64,000 bases of DNA, taken from assembly GCF_900112305.1 (NCBI RefSeq), contig NZ_FOKT01000003.1, positions 310,001-374,000 of the forward strand. The letters are read 5' to 3'. Positions 27,689-37,291 of this stretch are shown one piece after another. The translations under genes and the position numbers were made by a program. Position 1 is the stretch's first letter. Each line of letters begins with the position of its first letter. The DNA is from Microbulbifer thermotolerans. Its GTDB lineage: Bacteria > Pseudomonadota > Gammaproteobacteria > Pseudomonadales > Cellvibrionaceae. The notes below the pieces were generated by a model that was given only the letters and a program-made list of their open reading frames with translations, searched no databases and had not been told where the DNA came from.

Positions 27689-30112
<2,424 letters not shown>

Positions 30113-30329
30113 ATTGGCTGTCAGATCTCAGGAACTTTGCTCTGGAGTCTCAAGTCCATGCTCCCCAGTCTCAGACAAATACGCCGCGGCAGGGGAGGCA
30201 CCCTCCTATTGAGTGACAAGTTAAAAACATATTTTGTCTGATAATTCACATTATCTAACGCAACTCGAAATAGAAGCTACTGACGTAATTTTGAGCTAAC
30301 GCGTGCGAAATAGTGACAAAAGGTAGGCA

Positions 30330-32546
30330 ATGCCAGCTATGAGCCGTCCAACCTACAAAATCCGACCGGCCGCAAGACTGATCAGAACAATCGGCCAAGA
30401 TTTAATCAAAGATGTCTATGCGGCTATCGTCGAACTGGTTAAGAATTCATACGATGCAGATTCACCTAATGTAGTTATCTCCTTTAACTACGAGGAGAAA
30501 AGTAGTCGCTTAACGATCAGTGTTGAGGATCATGGGCATGGAATGAGCTCAGATATTGTCTGCAATCAGTGGCTCGTTCCCGCGACTGACGACAAACTGA
30601 AAAGGCGAACCAGTGCAAAAAAACGCGTCTTACAGGGCAGAAAGGGGATAGGGAGGTTCGCCGCAGCCATTTTGGGACAGCGTATCCTTCTTGAAACTAC
30701 ACAAAGTGGTACCACTACCTCACTGATTCTGGATATGGAGGAGCTGGAGTCCACTCAATATTTGGATGAATTTGATATTCCGATAGATGTCGTTAAGACG
30801 GGGAAGCCAGATGGCACAAGGTTGGAAATTGAGAAGGATGGAATAAGCTCGGAACAAGTTAAGGCTATATGGACCCCAAAACAGATCCATAAGCTACTTG
30901 TTGAGCTACGTAGCCTCACTGCACCTGCAGAGGTTTATGAAACCGCAAAATCTCAAGGCTTTGAGATTCAGCACGACAAATTCGAAATAGAGTTGCGATT
31001 CAACAAGTTCCCTGATGATAAATACTCTGACCAAACTATCGAGATTAAACCATTCCCAGTATTAGACCTATACGACTATAAGATCTCAGGGAAAGTTGAT
31101 GCGAACGGAAACGCTGAGCTGGAATTTGAAAACCAAAATATCCCTTCTTTACCCCCCCAACATATATCACTAAATATTCCTTTAGACAGCGATAACGGCC
31201 AAACATACCCTGGCGAGATATTTTTAGATCTACGTGTATACGATCGTGATCCTGATAGTATTGAAAATATCATTAAGCGAGGATTGAAAGATCCGACAAC
31301 GGGGGAGTACGTCGGAAAACAAGAGGCTAGAAAAATCCTTGATGAGTACTACGGAGTAGGAATTTATCGAGAGCAGTTCAGGATAAGGCCGTACGGAGAG
31401 CCGTCTTTTGATTGGCTCGAACTCGATAAAAAAAGGGTACAAGACCCTTCAAATAATATAGGGCACAACCAAACAATAGGTTTTGTGTATATTCGCTCTG
31501 AAGAGCAGTCCGGACTGAAGGAAAAAAGTGCTCGAGATGGTCTTGTTGAAAATGGGGCCTACTCAGGCTTAGTAACTCTTGTTTCTCAGGCAATCAATCA
31601 GCTGGCCACAAGAAGAAGACAGTACCGACAGCAGGCGTTAAAAGGTGGGCGCAGGAGAACACTACAGGACGAAGTTGACTCCCTTTTCGATTTTGATGAT
31701 ACCCGGAAGCGAATCAACAAAGAGCTTAATGAACTAGGGATTGCTCGCAGTGATAGAGAGCGCGTAGGTGTTGTTGTCGATAAAGTTTTGGATGATGAAA
31801 AGCAAAAAAAATCCGCAATAGCTAGGAAAATAAGAGACACGATTGCGATTTATCAGGGACAAGCAACACTTGGGAAAATTACTCATGTACTGCTGCATGA
31901 GGGGCGTAAGCACATAAAGTATATTTCTGAAACCGTTCCAAGAATAGCAAACTGGTCCCTTCAGATGGCGGATGGACCAAACGAGAGCCTGTCCCAAAAA
32001 ATAGAAGAACGTGGAAGCAAAGTGATCACACATGCCAAAGGGTTGAGCCATTTATTCGCCAGAATTGAGCCACTCGCAAGAACCCGGCGCGCCCCAAATA
32101 AAAACTTAAATTTAAAAAAAGAAGTTGAAGCCACATTTAACATCTTTGCTTCTGAGTTAAATTCAGCACAGATTTCCTACGAAGTGGATGCTGAAGAAAA
32201 GAATCTAAGTATCAATGGTAACGAAATGGACTTTATCACGGTCCTTTCAAACTTGATTGAAAACAGCATCTATTGGTTGGGCTACTCAACCTCTACAAAT
32301 AAGAAAATAAGCGTTAACATCTTTAGGGATAAAAATCATGTTTTGCTTGAATACTTTGATAATGGTCCTGGTTTCCAGGGGGACAACTTAAGTTTAATGT
32401 TTGAGCCTGGTTACAGTATGAAGCCAAATGGCACAGGACTTGGATTGGCATTGGCTGGAGAAGCTATAGGTAGACTTGGCGGCAAGATTGAAGCAAAGAA
32501 AACTAAAATTGGTGCTTTGTTCGAAATAATTTTCGGGGGGGATTGA
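30330..32546 (+). CDS. dual-GHKL ATPase: MORC/Hsp90-like N-terminal domain fused to a histidine-kinase-like C-terminal domain
   Basis: The 738-aa protein has two separate Bergerat ATP-binding folds. The first (about 15-200) shows ELVKNSYDAD (E35, N39), DHGHGM (D67) and GRKGIGRFAAA (103-113), as in MORC/Hsp90/MutL-type ATPases. The second (about 600-738) shows SNLIENS (N641-N645), DNGPGF and GTGLGLALAGEAI, as in histidine kinases. Between them, H523 in HVLLHEGRKHIKYI lies where a kinase H-box would be, after a charged helical region (450-520). No membrane segment is seen. A receiver-domain gene follows after one base, so phosphotransfer is plausible but unproven. The substrate and the signal are unknown. 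Confidence 0.85.
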   Translation: MPAMSRPTYKIRPAARLIRTIGQDLIKDVYAAIVELVKNSYDADSPNVVISFNYEEKSSRLTISVEDHGHGMSSDIVCNQWLVPATDDKLKRRTSAKKRVLQGRKGIGRFAAAILGQRILLETTQSGTTTSLILDMEELESTQYLDEFDIPIDVVKTGKPDGTRLEIEKDGISSEQVKAIWTPKQIHKLLVELRSLTAPAEVYETAKSQGFEIQHDKFEIELRFNKFPDDKYSDQTIEIKPFPVLDLYDYKISGKVDANGNAELEFENQNIPSLPPQHISLNIPLDSDNGQTYPGEIFLDLRVYDRDPDSIENIIKRGLKDPTTGEYVGKQEARKILDEYYGVGIYREQFRIRPYGEPSFDWLELDKKRVQDPSNNIGHNQTIGFVYIRSEEQSGLKEKSARDGLVENGAYSGLVTLVSQAINQLATRRRQYRQQALKGGRRRTLQDEVDSLFDFDDTRKRINKELNELGIARSDRERVGVVVDKVLDDEKQKKSAIARKIRDTIAIYQGQATLGKITHVLLHEGRKHIKYISETVPRIANWSLQMADGPNESLSQKIEERGSKVITHAKGLSHLFARIEPLARTRRAPNKNLNLKKEVEATFNIFASELNSAQISYEVDAEEKNLSINGNEMDFITVLSNLIENSIYWLGYSTSTNKKISVNIFRDKNHVLLEYFDNGPGFQGDNLSLMFEPGYSMKPNGTGLGLALAGEAIGRLGGKIEAKKTKIGALFEIIFGGD

Positions 32547-32547
32547 G

Positions 32548-33681
32548 TTGACGTCAGCAATGCGCATTTTGGTAGTAGAGGATGACGATGATACATTCGA
32601 CACTTATAAAGATACCGTTGATGAATTGGTCGAAGATGGACGAAAAATCGAACTTGTAAGAAAGGAATCAGCTAATGACGCTCTTTTTGCACTACTCTCT
32701 AAGGATTTTGATGGTGCTATTGTTGACTTAAACCTCAACCCCAATGATTCTTCTGAATCTACAGGCAATGATGTTCTGGCAGAAATTCTTCAAAAGCATC
32801 GCTTTCCCGTATTTGTTGTATCCGGAAATATACAAAACCTTAGAGAAGATATTCGAAAAAAAGAGTCAGACTTCCTGCGTTTTTTCAACAAAGATTCGAA
32901 TACTTCAAATAAAACTATTTTTCGTCATCTTACTGACATATATGATACAGGAATAACTAATATTTTGGGGGGGCGCGGTTTAATTGAACGTCATATTGGA
33001 GAAATTTTTTGGGGACATTTGGCTCAAGATTTTTCAGCTTTGTCCAAGGGGGAGCTCATCTCCGAAAGACGGCTACTCCGATACAACGTCAGCCACCTTC
33101 TTGAATATCTCGACATTTCAGAGAAGGAAGAGTATCACTACCATGAGGCGGAGTTTTATATCCGCCCGCCAATCAGAGCGCATATTGCTCCCGGTGACAT
33201 TGTAGAAGCAAATGAAGCAGACAAAGTTACCAGATTTCTTGTTTTGTCTCCGGCGTGTGATATAGCTGTTCGCGGATTAGATGGCCCGACACCTATTATC
33301 AATGCGAATATGATCATGCTCGCACCGATCATTCCAATAAATCGGTCGGCTTTCCTTGAGCGTGAAATAATCCATCCCGGCGATAATAGTGCAAAACGTG
33401 AAAAGAAACTGAGTGAAATTGTCAAAAGTAAGGCAGAAAAATTTGCTTTCCTCCCTGAGTATGCGGACATTTATCCTGGGGTTGTAGATTTTCAGAATAT
33501 CCATACTTGGAGCCTGGATAAGTTTCTAGAGGCAAAACGAATAGCGACCGTAGCCAATTCTTTCCTAAAAGATATCCAGTCAAGGTTCTCCTCCTACGTG
33601 GGACGGCAGGGGCAACCTGATCTTAATAAGAAGGAAATAATAAAAAGGCTGAAGGGTAATTTGAAGCCTGAGGATCAATAA
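32548..33681 (+). CDS. receiver-domain protein with unrecognised C-terminal region
   Basis: The 377-aa protein opens with a complete receiver domain: acidic pair in VVEDDDD (D12, D13), phospho-acceptor D60 in GAIVDLNLN, S92 in VFVVSGN and K115 in FFNKDS. The remaining 260 residues have no DNA-binding motif or other domain that I recognise; they include HIAPGDIVEANEADKVTRFLVLSPACDIAVRG, a beta-rich stretch, here quoted in part. The start may be the TTG at 32548 (G-run just upstream) or the ATG at 32560 (MRILVVEDD). It is one base after the ATPase gene and overlaps vsr by one base (TAATG), so the three genes form an operon. It is the likely phosphoryl acceptor of the ATPase. Confidence 0.8.
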   Translation: MTSAMRILVVEDDDDTFDTYKDTVDELVEDGRKIELVRKESANDALFALLSKDFDGAIVDLNLNPNDSSESTGNDVLAEILQKHRFPVFVVSGNIQNLREDIRKKESDFLRFFNKDSNTSNKTIFRHLTDIYDTGITNILGGRGLIERHIGEIFWGHLAQDFSALSKGELISERRLLRYNVSHLLEYLDISEKEEYHYHEAEFYIRPPIRAHIAPGDIVEANEADKVTRFLVLSPACDIAVRGLDGPTPIINANMIMLAPIIPINRSAFLEREIIHPGDNSAKREKKLSEIVKSKAEKFAFLPEYADIYPGVVDFQNIHTWSLDKFLEAKRIATVANSFLKDIQSRFSSYVGRQGQPDLNKKEIIKRLKGNLKPEDQ

Positions 33682-34085
33682 TGTCTGATGTCTTAAGCCC
33701 AGAGCAAAGAAAATTTTGCATGTCACGTATTTCTGGGCGGAATACTCAACCCGAGCTGGCGCTAAGGAAAGGCTTGTGGGTAATTGGATATAGGTACCGA
33801 CTTCGGACGCAACTGCCGGGAAATCCGGATATAGTCTTTCCCAAAAAGAAGGTTGCAGTTTTTGTAGATGGTTGCTTTTGGCACAAATGCCCAAAACATT
33901 TCGTAATACCAAAAACCCGTACTAATTTTTGGATGGATAAAATCAACAAAAATTGTGAGCGGGACAAGCGGGTTACAAAAGAATTAAAGCAATCGGGATG
34001 GAAGGTGCTCCGTATCTGGGAGCACGAGATAAAGGAAAACCTGTCGGCTTGCGTGGAGCGCGTTGAAGCGCTCCTGAGTCAGTGA
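33681..34085 (+). CDS. vsr: very short patch repair endonuclease (Vsr)
   Basis: Vsr nicks DNA 5' of T in T:G mismatches that arise by deamination of 5-methylcytosine. The 134-aa protein has all family landmarks: MSRISGRNTQPELALRK, LPGNPDIVFPKKKVAVFVDG, CFWHKCP (zinc and active-site region), FW-x2-KI-x2-N and GWKVLRIWEHEI. Its start overlaps the stop of the receiver gene, and its stop overlaps the stop of the endonuclease gene on the other strand. The C5-methyltransferase in the same island gives it a reason to exist: repair of mutations at the methylated site. Confidence 0.95.
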   Translation: MSDVLSPEQRKFCMSRISGRNTQPELALRKGLWVIGYRYRLRTQLPGNPDIVFPKKKVAVFVDGCFWHKCPKHFVIPKTRTNFWMDKINKNCERDKRVTKELKQSGWKVLRIWEHEIKENLSACVERVEALLSQ

Positions 34086-35369
34086 TTTTCCTCTAACCAA
34101 CGCTGGACGTCTGATGGATGCCCCAGCTTTCTAAGAAGCAGCTTGGCAATATCGGAGGCACTTAAAACAACCACTAGGTGGTCGTCACTCTTAAGTTCCT
34201 TGTAAGCTTGATTTGCAAGGTAGGAAGTGGTTACTAACACCCCAAACTGACAATGGCGCAGCCGGGAAATCAATCGCGAAATTTCTTTTACTCCGACCCC
34301 GTTGTTGATCGCATAGCATTTCGCCTCCATAACGAAATCAACATCTATCCCACTTGCTCCCTGGCAGATACGGTATTTCCCCGTTGCATCCCTGCCTCCA
34401 TCCCTCCATGGCCTTGTGATCTCAATATTGTGCGCATTTGGCATTGCGATACTGACCAAATCAGCTGCAAGGGACTTGAACCCCGTTGGAGAATCCTTGA
34501 AACGATTGTAGATAGACGAGATAACAGATTGTTCGTCGTGACCTGCCCCCCACTTTCTAGTCCACTTCAATCCTAGTAATGTTCATCACCAATGAGGACG
34601 ATGAACATTACTAGGATTGAAGTGGACTAGAAAGTGGGGAGCAGGTCAGTCGGTGGAAAGATCCGTTTGATCTTTCGTTGATCGAATACCGACTGTTCTT
34701 TCTGTGACCAGCCGATCGTATTTACGTTTATTTATCCAGTCTAACCATGGTTTCGGGGCGTGAGGGGAGGTCTGTGCCAAGCCGTTTTGTGCATCCCGTA
34801 TCCAGCTTCTCGAAACAATGGGCACATTTAGTATTGTGAACGTTGCCCGATAGTTCTGGAATCGGACATCCCTCTGCTGATGTTCTCCAAATCGCAGTGA
34901 GATCCTCGTCAGAACTCATGCCCTTGGCGCCCGGAACAGCCAGCCCTAGAAATCTGGTATCGCGGTATGTGCCCCTTTTGCGAAAGAGAAGGATAGGGGG
35001 GAATGCCGTCGTGGGTGAGGGCTTGCCGTGGCAGTACTCGAAAATGCTACGAAGGATCTTGTTTCCGTCGCGCTTCGTATCATGCAGATCGCCAGGCGCG
35101 CGTTTGTCGCCGTAGTAAGTAAACAAACCGTTTTCGATATCCAGCTCATCTGGCCAGTCAAGATTCGAGAAATCAGTCTGAAGCACCAGTAACTTAAGGG
35201 AATCAACTTCCGTTCTAGGGCTTCCGAGACACCGAAACCCTGCTCCGTTATCAACACCTAACAGTGCAGGAAGCGGGTTATCAGAATAGTTACCCTTTCT
35301 CGAGCCGCCATAAATTGCGTCAACGAAAAGGTCCTGACTGAAAAGCTCTGTACTGATAATTTCCATCAT
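34079..35369 (-). pseudogene. broken restriction endonuclease: AspBHI-type N-terminal domain plus Mrr-like nuclease domain
   Basis: The N-terminal part (from ATG at 35369) reads LFVDAIYGGSRKGNYSDNPL ... LFTYYGDKRAPGDLHDTKRDG ... FLGLAVPGAKG, the AspBHI_N-like recognition domain as I recall it. After C168 a one-base excess (CC for C at 34864-34865) shifts the frame. The correct sequence continues in another frame as RFQNYRATFTILNVPIVSR. A 110-bp inverted-repeat element at 34539-34648 then interrupts the gene. The last 150 codons restore the nuclease domain: RPWRDGGRDATG ... DFVMEAKCY (PD-(D/E)xK type) and FGVLVTTSYLANQAY. Dropping one base and 114 bp gives 1176 bp, exactly 392 codons including the stop. 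Its start overlaps the methyltransferase stop by four bases. Confidence 0.85.
34539..34648. mobile_element. 110-bp miniature inverted-repeat element inside the restriction gene
   Basis: The element consists of two 49-bp arms (34539-34587 and 34600-34648) that are inverted copies with one mismatch, around a 12-base spacer. It is flanked by GTCG on both sides (34535-34538 and 34649-34652), a 4-bp target duplication. The ends TGACCTGC(C/T)CCCCACTTT resemble ends of IS3-family insertion sequences (from memory). It has no coding capacity. Removing it with one GTCG restores the reading frame of the nuclease domain. Confidence 0.88.
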
Positions 35370-36346
35370 GCAACATCGCGCTGGAGGAGTGCGAGTTCGT
35401 TCAGCTTTTTAAAGATGATTTCAGTAACGGGGGAACATACCCCGTTTCCACAAAGCTTTATTTTGTCACGGCGGCTGCCTACGGGAAGTTTGTGTTTACT
35501 ATTACCACACATTGCTTTAAGTAGTTCTGAAGGCTGTAGCATTCTGAGCTGTGGCTCGCCTTTTTTCCATGTGACCAAGCCGAAGCGGTCAAGAGTAGTT
35601 ACCGTACGCAATGGGTCTTCAAGCCGTTGCCACCCTCCCGCATAGTCAGAGCCGTAGTAGACAATTAGGAAGTCTTTGTTTCTTCCTAGTTCGGCCATCG
35701 CACGCTCGGCACGCTCTATTGTTGCCTTTGCTCTATTCGGACTATAAAGCGGCTTGGATTTGTACTGTCCTGACCAATCGATAATTGATGCAGCAGTTTT
35801 TCGCTGGCGTCTATGAAGCTTCAAGAGATCTTCTTTGGTTATCTTCGTACCCAACCTGTCGCAAACCAGAAACATACGCTTTCTGGCCTGGGGTGCGCCG
35901 AAGTCAGCAGCATTCAATTCCAGTGGACTGACTTCATATTTTTGCCTGCGGATGTCTTGGATAAGCCTTTCCAGGCCCGCCCACTTCTTCATCCGCGGTA
36001 CGTTCTCTACGATTACCCAGCGGGGTTTTAGGGCTCTCATCCAGGGAATTATACCTAGGGCCGCTTCTTTGCTCTGTTCACAGCCGGGGCGGGCACCACG
36101 GGCAATGGAATGAGAGGTACACTCAGGAGAGGTAAGCAGTACGTCTGGCTGATACTTCCGTGCATATTTTTGCGGTGCCACATTTTCAATACGTTCGGTA
36201 AGAACCTCCGCCTCGGGGAAGTTATGTTGATAGGTTGCTGTCGCAAGATCCCAAGCATCTACAGCAAGAAGAGGTGTTGCTCCGGCATTGACTGCACCAC
36301 GAGCACCAAAACCGCCACCGCAAAAAAGGTCTACAAAAGTAAGCAT
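35366..36346 (-). CDS. DNA (cytosine-5-)-methyltransferase
   Basis: The 326-aa enzyme has the ordered C5-methyltransferase motifs. Motif I is DLFCGGGGFG-like (FVDLFCGGGFGARGA); motif IV carries the catalytic cysteine as TSPECTSHS, the PEC variant rather than the usual PPC. Motif VI is VIVENV, motif VIII QARKRMF, and motifs IX-X appear as RMLQPSELLKAMCG and LCGNGVCSPVTE. The short variable region (about 200-260) implies a single compact recognition domain. It is the first gene of the leftward pair; its stop overlaps the endonuclease start (ATGA). With the nuclease broken it should act as an orphan methyltransferase. The target site cannot be deduced. Confidence 0.92.
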   Translation of the reverse strand: MLTFVDLFCGGGFGARGAVNAGATPLLAVDAWDLATATYQHNFPEAEVLTERIENVAPQKYARKYQPDVLLTSPECTSHSIARGARPGCEQSKEAALGIIPWMRALKPRWVIVENVPRMKKWAGLERLIQDIRRQKYEVSPLELNAADFGAPQARKRMFLVCDRLGTKITKEDLLKLHRRQRKTAASIIDWSGQYKSKPLYSPNRAKATIERAERAMAELGRNKDFLIVYYGSDYAGGWQRLEDPLRTVTTLDRFGLVTWKKGEPQLRMLQPSELLKAMCGNSKHKLPVGSRRDKIKLCGNGVCSPVTEIIFKKLNELALLQRDVA

Positions 36347-36839: not shown

Positions 36840-37241
36840 GGTACCGGTTATCCGTTCGGCTATGAATTCTTCGATTCCGCTGAATACCGCTCGATCTGTA
36901 CCTTGGGCGAGAAGCTTCAGGACCTGTTGGAAGAGGGGGCCTATGTCCGCCGTGGTGAAAAGCAGCAACCGGTGACAAGCTTCCCCGAAGCCCTGGAGTG
37001 GCTGATGAATGAAAGCCGCCGCGGCTACGGTATACAGCGCTACAAGGGCCTTGGTGAAATGAACCCCGATCAGCTGTGGGAAACCACCATGAACCCTGAG
37101 AGCCGCCGCATGCTGCAGGTAACGGTGGAAGACGCCATCGCCGCGGACCAGATCTTCACCACGCTGATGGGCGACCAGGTGGAACCGCGCCGGGAGTTTA
37201 TCGAGAGCAATGCGCTGGCAGTGGAAAACCTGGATGTATAA
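36840..37241 (+). pseudogene. truncated duplicate of the gyrB 3' end
   Basis: This is the last 134 codons of gyrB, beginning [18 protein letters not shown] and ending in the normal stop. Homology starts abruptly at GGTACCG (36840). The middle group of five mismatches to the intact gene is entirely synonymous ([14 protein letters not shown] preserved); the first group includes Asp to Gly and His to Tyr. No N-terminal part or ribosome site is present, so it should not be translated as a functional subunit. It is followed by the terminator at 37292, probably the original gyrB terminator. Confidence 0.95.
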
Positions 37242-37244
37242 GGG
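36840..37244 (+). repeat. right direct repeat: 3' end of gyrB
   Basis: This is the partner of 29708-30112. Beyond 37244 the two sequences lose similarity (TTGGGTTAACC here, TTGGCTGTCAG there). This copy retains the apparent ancestral downstream flank. Confidence 0.97.
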
Positions 37245-37291
37245 CTTGGGTTAACCGGAATAGGGGTTCCAAGCTGCATTCAGCAAGAACA

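What the first reader, a model, noticed from the sequence alone, without database searches (positions are those of the whole stretch)
30330..34085. Candidate undescribed system: dual-GHKL ATPase, receiver protein and Vsr in one operon
The three genes are packed with 1-bp gaps or overlaps. The first product combines a MORC/Hsp90-like ATPase and a histidine-kinase-like ATPase in one soluble protein; the second has a complete receiver domain without a DNA-binding output; the third is Vsr. A two-component-like pair inside an R-M island suggests that phosphorylation controls DNA damage sensing, restriction or repair. Known GHKL-containing defence systems (for example the MutL-type protein of MZA, from memory) have different partners.
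Basis: partly seen in the sequence, partly recalled or inferred. Interest (0 to 1): 0.8.

Follow-up and report, generated by a model that had tools for sequence, protein, structure and literature searches.

The report
Methylase-linked two-component defence module
A bacterial DNA-methylation cassette carries a kinase and receiver gene pair that looks like a phosphorylation-triggered anti-phage module; the pair was predicted in 2021, but its likely effector end, and the swapping of that end for nucleases used in other defence systems, appear to be new.

Summary
30330-34085 encodes a 738-aa protein (MORC-like GHKL+S5 ATPase joined to a complete histidine-kinase core, H523), a 377-aa receiver protein (D60) and Vsr, in one tight operon beside a Dcm gene. 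"Undescribed" does not hold: Bellieny-Rabelo 2021 (PMC8011034) predicted this kinase/receiver pair next to C5-methylases and Vsr. The window pair misses that paper's Pfam models but belongs to a sister subfamily. New points: (1) the receiver protein has an output domain with a PemK/MazF-like fold and an invariant Cys-Asp...Arg-x-Gly signature instead of MazF's catalytic residues. (2) Where that domain is missing (14 of 14 complete short receivers), the next gene encodes a PtuB-like HNH or an LmuA/Avs1a-like metallo-beta-lactamase protein. (3) A DNA methylase lies nearby in 64 of 70 loci, but its type changes (C5, N6/N4). (4) Vsr follows Dcm, not the pair. (5) One Dcm-AspBHI-Vsr cassette type is paired with kinases only 26-29% identical. 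(6) In the window the AspBHI-like nuclease is a pseudogene. Most likely this is a methylase-linked defence module in which a His-Asp relay fires an exchangeable effector. Trigger, phosphotransfer and phage protection are untested.

The parts
30330..32546 (+). MORC-HK sensor kinase, 738 aa: N-terminal GHKL (aa ~10-196), S5-like (~219-388), DHp helices 473-547 and 552-583, catalytic ATP-binding domain 591-735
   Evidence: Foldseek: SMCHD1 2.9e-13, MORC2 1.9e-11, HK853 2.7e-13
31896..31898 (+). phospho-acceptor His523 codon (LLHEGR)
   Evidence: invariant in 69/69 of A5 and 136/136
32548..33681 (+). receiver-effector protein, 377 aa (TTG start; alternative ATG at 32560)
   Evidence: AF2 pLDDT 93
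32557..32907 (+). receiver domain with Asp60 (codon 32725-32727)
33145..33618 (+). PemK/MazF-like output domain with Cys237-Asp238 and Arg353-x-Gly355
   Evidence: fold; conservation
33681..34085 (+). Vsr mismatch endonuclease; accessory of Dcm rather than of the pair
34079..34570 (-). C-terminal (Mrr_cat) fragment of the AspBHI-like restriction enzyme, pseudogene
34539..34648 (.). palindromic MITE-like element (49-bp arms) inserted in the nuclease gene; further copies elsewhere in the genome
34728..35369 (-). N-terminal (RE_AspBHI_N) fragment of the same pseudogene; frameshift between 34864 and 34881
35366..36346 (-). Dcm, C5-cytosine methyltransferase (326 aa, apparently intact)
36840..37249 (+). 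second copy of the gyrB 3' end (410 bp, 97%) marking the right edge of the island; first copy 29708-30117

Best explanation
The HK-RR pair is a soluble His-Asp signalling defence module that travels with a DNA methyltransferase. Proposed steps: (1) the methylase marks self DNA (inferred from linkage). (2) The MORC/SMCHD1-like ATPase half of the kinase, an ATP-driven DNA clamp in its eukaryotic relatives, senses DNA lacking the mark, or DNA damaged or arrested during infection (inferred, signal unknown). (3) The kinase core autophosphorylates His523 and passes the phosphate to Asp60 (inferred from complete, invariant machinery). (4) Phosphorylation frees or activates the effector: in the window the fused PemK/MazF-like output domain with its Cys-Asp/Arg-x-Gly site, in other clades a separate HNH or metallo-beta-lactamase protein encoded by the next gene (coupling shown by gene order; activity inferred). 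The outcome would be destruction of nucleic acid or growth arrest that backs up or replaces a conventional restriction enzyme. Vsr repairs deaminated 5mC left by Dcm and is a passenger of the methylase. Rough likelihoods: phosphotransfer pair 0.85; PemK-like fold 0.8; defence role 0.75; the methylation-gated trigger 0.45.
For: Pair linkage: 73/79 and 52/66. Reciprocal search of 398 genomes with the output domain: all 3 strong foreign hits and 2 of 3 weak ones sit next to the kinase. H523 and D60 conserved in 136/136; N-terminal ATPase residues E35/N39/D67/K105 in 135/136. AF2 with Foldseek: kinase core, MORC-type module, receiver. Output domain: several PemK/MazF/endoribonuclease models among the BFVD hits at probability about 1, target TM up to 0.66; in profile-profile comparison PemK outscored all 24 background families (21.1 vs at most 13.8), though E is only 0.006. 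Effector exchange: all complete short receivers have a nuclease-type gene at -32 to +7 bp (13, plus L169): HNH or MBL. Examples resemble PtuB (3e-15) and LmuA/RTasMBL/Avs1a (2e-12 to 2e-6). The tree gives one HNH clade and two separate MBL placements. DNA methylase near 64/70 pairs, of changing type. The same Dcm-AspBHI-Vsr cassette type is joined to HKs only 26-29% identical. Patchy: full-length homologues in only 4 other same-genus genomes.
Against: No experiment. MazF's catalytic Arg and Thr are not conserved, so the output domain may bind rather than cleave. The fold call rests on a predicted model and moderate E-values; the domain alone could not be searched. The HNH cases are one clade, so the exchange events are few (about three). 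Six of 70 loci show no methylase among the genes tested. Linkage to R-M genes also fits a regulator of R-M expression.
Confidence: 0.55

Rival explanations
1. The pair regulates the R-M cassette itself: it senses imbalance or foreign DNA and the phosphorylated receiver protein adjusts expression or activity of methylase and nuclease (the 2021 authors' suggestion).
For: Strong linkage to methylases; R-M systems often carry controllers (general knowledge); PMC8011034 speculates this.
Against: No DNA-binding output is found. In the window the nuclease is dead while HK, RR, Vsr and Dcm stay open. Effector-type nuclease genes replace the output domain.
Confidence: 0.2
2. The HK-RR pair is itself the restriction arm: the methylase protects sites, the MORC-HK clamp scans for unmodified sites, and the receiver-effector cuts there, so methylase+HK+RR(+HNH) is a complete phosphorelay-type R-M system.
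For: Loci such as L169, L111 and L120 have methylase-HK-RR-HNH/MBL with no other restriction enzyme recognised among the scanned neighbours; methylase linkage 64/70.
Against: The window's cassette type has an AspBHI-like enzyme of its own, intact in L168 and present in L016. Site-specific cutting has not been shown; some loci show no methylase.
Confidence: 0.15
3. The three genes form a DNA-repair pathway in which a MutL-like GHKL kinase and receiver control Vsr repair of T:G mismatches.
For: Vsr directly behind RR in 12 loci; MutL-Vsr precedent discussed in PMC2292703; HhH-GPD glycosylase behind RR in L076 and L081.
Against: Vsr absent from all 21 Dcm-less loci and from 21 of 49 Dcm loci; HNH and MBL effectors fit defence better.
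Confidence: 0.05
4. An ordinary two-component regulator that merely hitch-hikes with R-M islands.
For: Receiver and HK core are canonical.
Against: MORC-type N-half instead of a sensor domain, no DNA-binding output, repeated re-pairing with the same cassette type, exchangeable effectors.
Confidence: 0.05

Closest known systems
HEF_HK (PF19191) / Response_reg_2 (PF19192) TCS-like pair, Bellieny-Rabelo 2021 (PMC8011034)
   Same: HATPase_c_3 + DHp + HATPase_c kinase, adjacent receiver gene, C5-methylase and Vsr neighbours; the SPACD motif of the output domain is present in two of three members examined
   Different: Window proteins miss both Pfam models (E>0.5); kinase about 740 vs 990 aa, receiver 377 vs 555-617 aa; no output domain, effector exchange or defence effector was reported there
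MORC / paraMORC GHKL ATPases in R-M operons (Iyer 2008, PMC2292703)
   Same: GHKL+S5 module, linkage to Dcm, Vsr and HNH
   Different: Here fused to a full histidine kinase and paired with a receiver; 'receiver' does not occur in that paper
Detocs defensive two-component system
   Same: Two-component-type defence system with a toxic effector (PMC11249213; further detail from memory)
   Different: Three genes with a PNP effector that degrades ATP; no methylase or MORC module that I know of (memory); no homology test made
Septu (PtuB HNH), Lamassu (LmuA), DRT-associated MBL and Avs1a effectors
   Same: The swapped-in HNH and MBL genes match these models
   Different: Their sensors are ATPases or reverse transcriptases, not histidine kinases (general knowledge)
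MZA system (MzaB GHKL)
   Same: MzaB model matches the N-terminal GHKL of one relative weakly (L169, 6.9e-8)
   Different: Other partners; no match for the window protein

Membership tests
HEF_HK/Response_reg_2 pair (PF19191/PF19192) | match to the Pfam models | tested here: not met
   no hit for the window pair at E<=0.5; PF19192 hits 1 of 73 relatives
HEF_HK/Response_reg_2 pair (PF19191/PF19192) | homology to accepted members | tested here: met
   HK profile hits three PF19192-linked kinases at 7e-97, 3e-96 and 8e-102; RR profile 2e-3 to 2e-13
HEF_HK/Response_reg_2 pair (PF19191/PF19192) | HK gene next to RR gene in an R-M context | tested here: met
Histidine kinase (class I core) | phospho-His in DHp hairpin plus N, G1, G2 boxes | tested here: met
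   H523 136/136, N641/N645, D677 130/136, G703; Foldseek HK853
Histidine kinase (class I core) | autophosphorylation and phosphotransfer | not testable with these tools
   needs biochemistry
Response regulator | acidic pair, phospho-Asp, Ser/Thr, Lys | tested here: met
   D12 123/136, D60 136/136, S/T92 122, K115 108 (+19 Arg)
PemK/MazF toxin family | SH3-like PemK fold | tested here: inconclusive
   supported by Foldseek; profile E 0.006 only; no Pfam hit
PemK/MazF toxin family | catalytic Arg and Thr/Ser | tested here: not met
   R229 in 8/73, no conserved Thr after beta-3; hence not filed as a MazF toxin
Type II R-M system with AspBHI-like nuclease | intact nuclease gene | tested here: not met
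   frameshift plus inserted palindrome
PADLOC-listed defence system | existing model covers the gene pair | tested here: not met
   only partial hits REase_II 2e-10 and PDC-M60C 7e-4
Detocs | PNP effector with three-gene set | not tested
   no Detocs sequence compared; no PNP domain in the window proteins

The most novel reading that the evidence does not exclude
A widespread class of phosphorelay immunity: DNA methylase marks self, a MORC-type ATPase fused to a histidine kinase detects non-self DNA, and a receiver fires an exchangeable effector (PemK-like Cys-Asp domain, PtuB-like HNH, LmuA-like MBL), replacing or backing up classical restriction.
Probability: 0.5. Interest if true: 0.85.

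Novelty: new variant of a known kind. Interest (0 to 1): 0.6.

Why it matters
His-Asp phosphorelays are rare in known bacterial immunity (Detocs is the one example I know of). If confirmed, this would join three separate themes, namely DNA methylation as a self mark, MORC-type ATPases (chromatin silencers in eukaryotes) and two-component signalling, in one module found across phyla. It would also give a function to a gene pair known since 2021 only as two predicted domains. The effector-exchange pattern makes the role directly testable in laboratory E. coli.

Tried and rejected
Sequence search of the output domain against PDB and Pfam found nothing; a first profile comparison with eight PemK sequences was not significant. 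I considered that the short receivers might be split genes with the output domain in the next ORF; rejected, since the next ORFs have no hit to that domain and are HNH or MBL. L013 and L014 appear to be ordinary HK/RR neighbours; they were left out of the locus statistics and the tree, although the 136-pair residue count still includes them. The 220-263-aa genes behind receivers in another viral clade gave no family. Literature searches for later work on HEF_HK found only the 2021 paper and one incidental mention; a 2026 paper lists HATPase and REC among unvalidated predicted defence domains (PMC13092281).

Full report
CHECK. The three ORFs are present as stated: 30330-32546, 32548-33681 and 33681-34085. 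They sit in a low-GC island (down to 0.38, against about 0.55-0.60 outside) behind gyrB. The gyrB 3' end is repeated on the far side (410 bp, 97%). The island also holds, on the other strand, a Dcm methylase and an AspBHI-like restriction gene. The latter is a pseudogene: compared with an intact homologue in a same-genus genome (L168, 383 aa) it has a frameshift between 34864 and 34881 and an inserted 110-bp palindromic element that occurs elsewhere in the genome. The same gene is interrupted by a DDE transposase in L170, reduced to 96 aa in L078 and was not found in L017, while HK, RR, Vsr and Dcm remain.

ANATOMY. The 738-aa protein folds (pLDDT 87.5) as a GHKL+S5 module matching SMCHD1 and MORC2, followed by a kinase core matching HK853. 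A 75-residue helix carries His523, with a second helix (552-583) and the catalytic domain behind it. The second protein (pLDDT 93) is a canonical receiver followed by about 240 residues that no library recognises. From the order of motifs (GDIV, FLVLSP, MIMLAPI, GVVDFQNIHTWS, RIATV...SFLKDIQSRFSSYVG) I suspected a PemK/MazF-like barrel before the structure search. Foldseek against viral models then returned several PemK/MazF-family hits, and a profile comparison put PemK above all 24 background families, although with E 0.006. The catalytic residues of MazF are not conserved. Instead, among 73 relatives Cys237 and Gly355 are invariant and Asp238 and Arg353 nearly so.

RELATIVES. 145 loci were collected with the kinase profile. 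The receiver gene follows the kinase directly in 73/79 genome loci and 52/66 viral loci. Searching 398 genomes in the other direction, with the output domain, gave the same pairing for all three strong foreign hits and for two of the three weak ones. H523 and D60 are present in 136/136 pairs. Among 70 loci with full flanks, 49 have Dcm and 15 more have an N6/N4/Eco57I-type methylase, nine by Pfam and six by homology to those. Vsr occurs only with Dcm (28/49 vs 0/21, p 1.8e-6), so it belongs to the methylase. Same-genus loci L168 and L170 have close relatives of the window's Dcm (68-70%), AspBHI (54-59%) and Vsr (57-63%), but kinases only 26-29% identical. One cassette type has therefore been joined to very different kinase-receiver pairs, which argues for functional coupling rather than shared descent.

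EFFECTOR EXCHANGE. 93 of 106 long receivers match the output-domain profile. Receivers of 209-243 aa lack it, and in all 13 complete cases the next gene starts within -32 to +7 bp. It encodes an HNH protein (nine loci) or a metallo-beta-lactamase-fold protein (four loci). A fourteenth case (L169) lies in a genome of the window's own genus, behind an N6 methylase. PADLOC models identify examples of these partners as PtuB-like (Septu, 3e-15) and LmuA/RTasMBL/Avs1a-like (2e-12 to 2e-6). In the kinase tree the HNH cases form one clade (support 0.998) and the MBL cases fall in two places, so there are about three exchanges, not fourteen. A further viral clade has a 220-263-aa gene of unknown kind in that position.

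INTERPRETATION. The pair reads as a signalling front end that drives an effector, held next to a methylase that can mark self. The trigger is unknown. Either the pair backs up restriction, or in loci where no other restriction enzyme was recognised it is the restriction arm itself. Control of R-M expression, proposed in 2021, is less likely because no DNA-binding output is found and because the output domain is exchangeable with nuclease-type genes.

PRIOR KNOWLEDGE. PMC8011034 already reported the HK-like/RR-like pair (PF19191/PF19192), its 91.6% linkage, its R-M context and Vsr directly behind RR. The window pair falls outside those models, but profile comparison shows a common family, and the SPACD motif occurs in two of three accepted-type receivers examined. 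That paper found no other known domain in the receiver proteins. PMC2292703 described paraMORCs in R-M operons without receivers. The finding is therefore a new variant and an extension of a known predicted pair, not an undescribed system.

Noticed in passing
window 29708-30117 and 36840-37249: The 3' end of gyrB (410 bp, 97%, last 250 bp nearly identical) is duplicated on both sides of the island, suggesting entry or recombination at the gyrB end.
   Followed up: partly
window 34539-34648; G000 C22:346597-346666; C18:71971-72039: Palindromic MITE-like element with 49-bp arms, at least three copies in the genome, one inside the AspBHI-like gene.
   Followed up: yes
L144:8362-9102 and homologues in L132, L134, L137, L155, L156, L157: A 244-263-aa gene with no convincing Pfam or PDB match, tightly behind the receiver, with invariant HxD and further His/Arg/Asp residues: possible unknown effector.
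   Followed up: partly
L170:4437-5414: A DDE (IS630-like) transposase gene interrupts the AspBHI-like gene in another genome of the genus; with L078 and L017 this suggests repeated loss of the nuclease next to an intact Dcm and Vsr.
   Followed up: partly
L083:8736-9950: A PAPS-reductase-domain gene (DndC-like?) in the place of the methylase before HK-RR, hinting at DNA phosphorothioation as an alternative mark.
   Followed up: no
L076:13319-13942, L081:4354-4974: An HhH-GPD DNA glycosylase directly behind the receiver gene, perhaps in the role that Vsr has elsewhere.
   Followed up: no
L080 (archaeal MAG, uncultured Cenarchaeum): A cluster of several MORC-HK and receiver genes in tandem.
   Followed up: no
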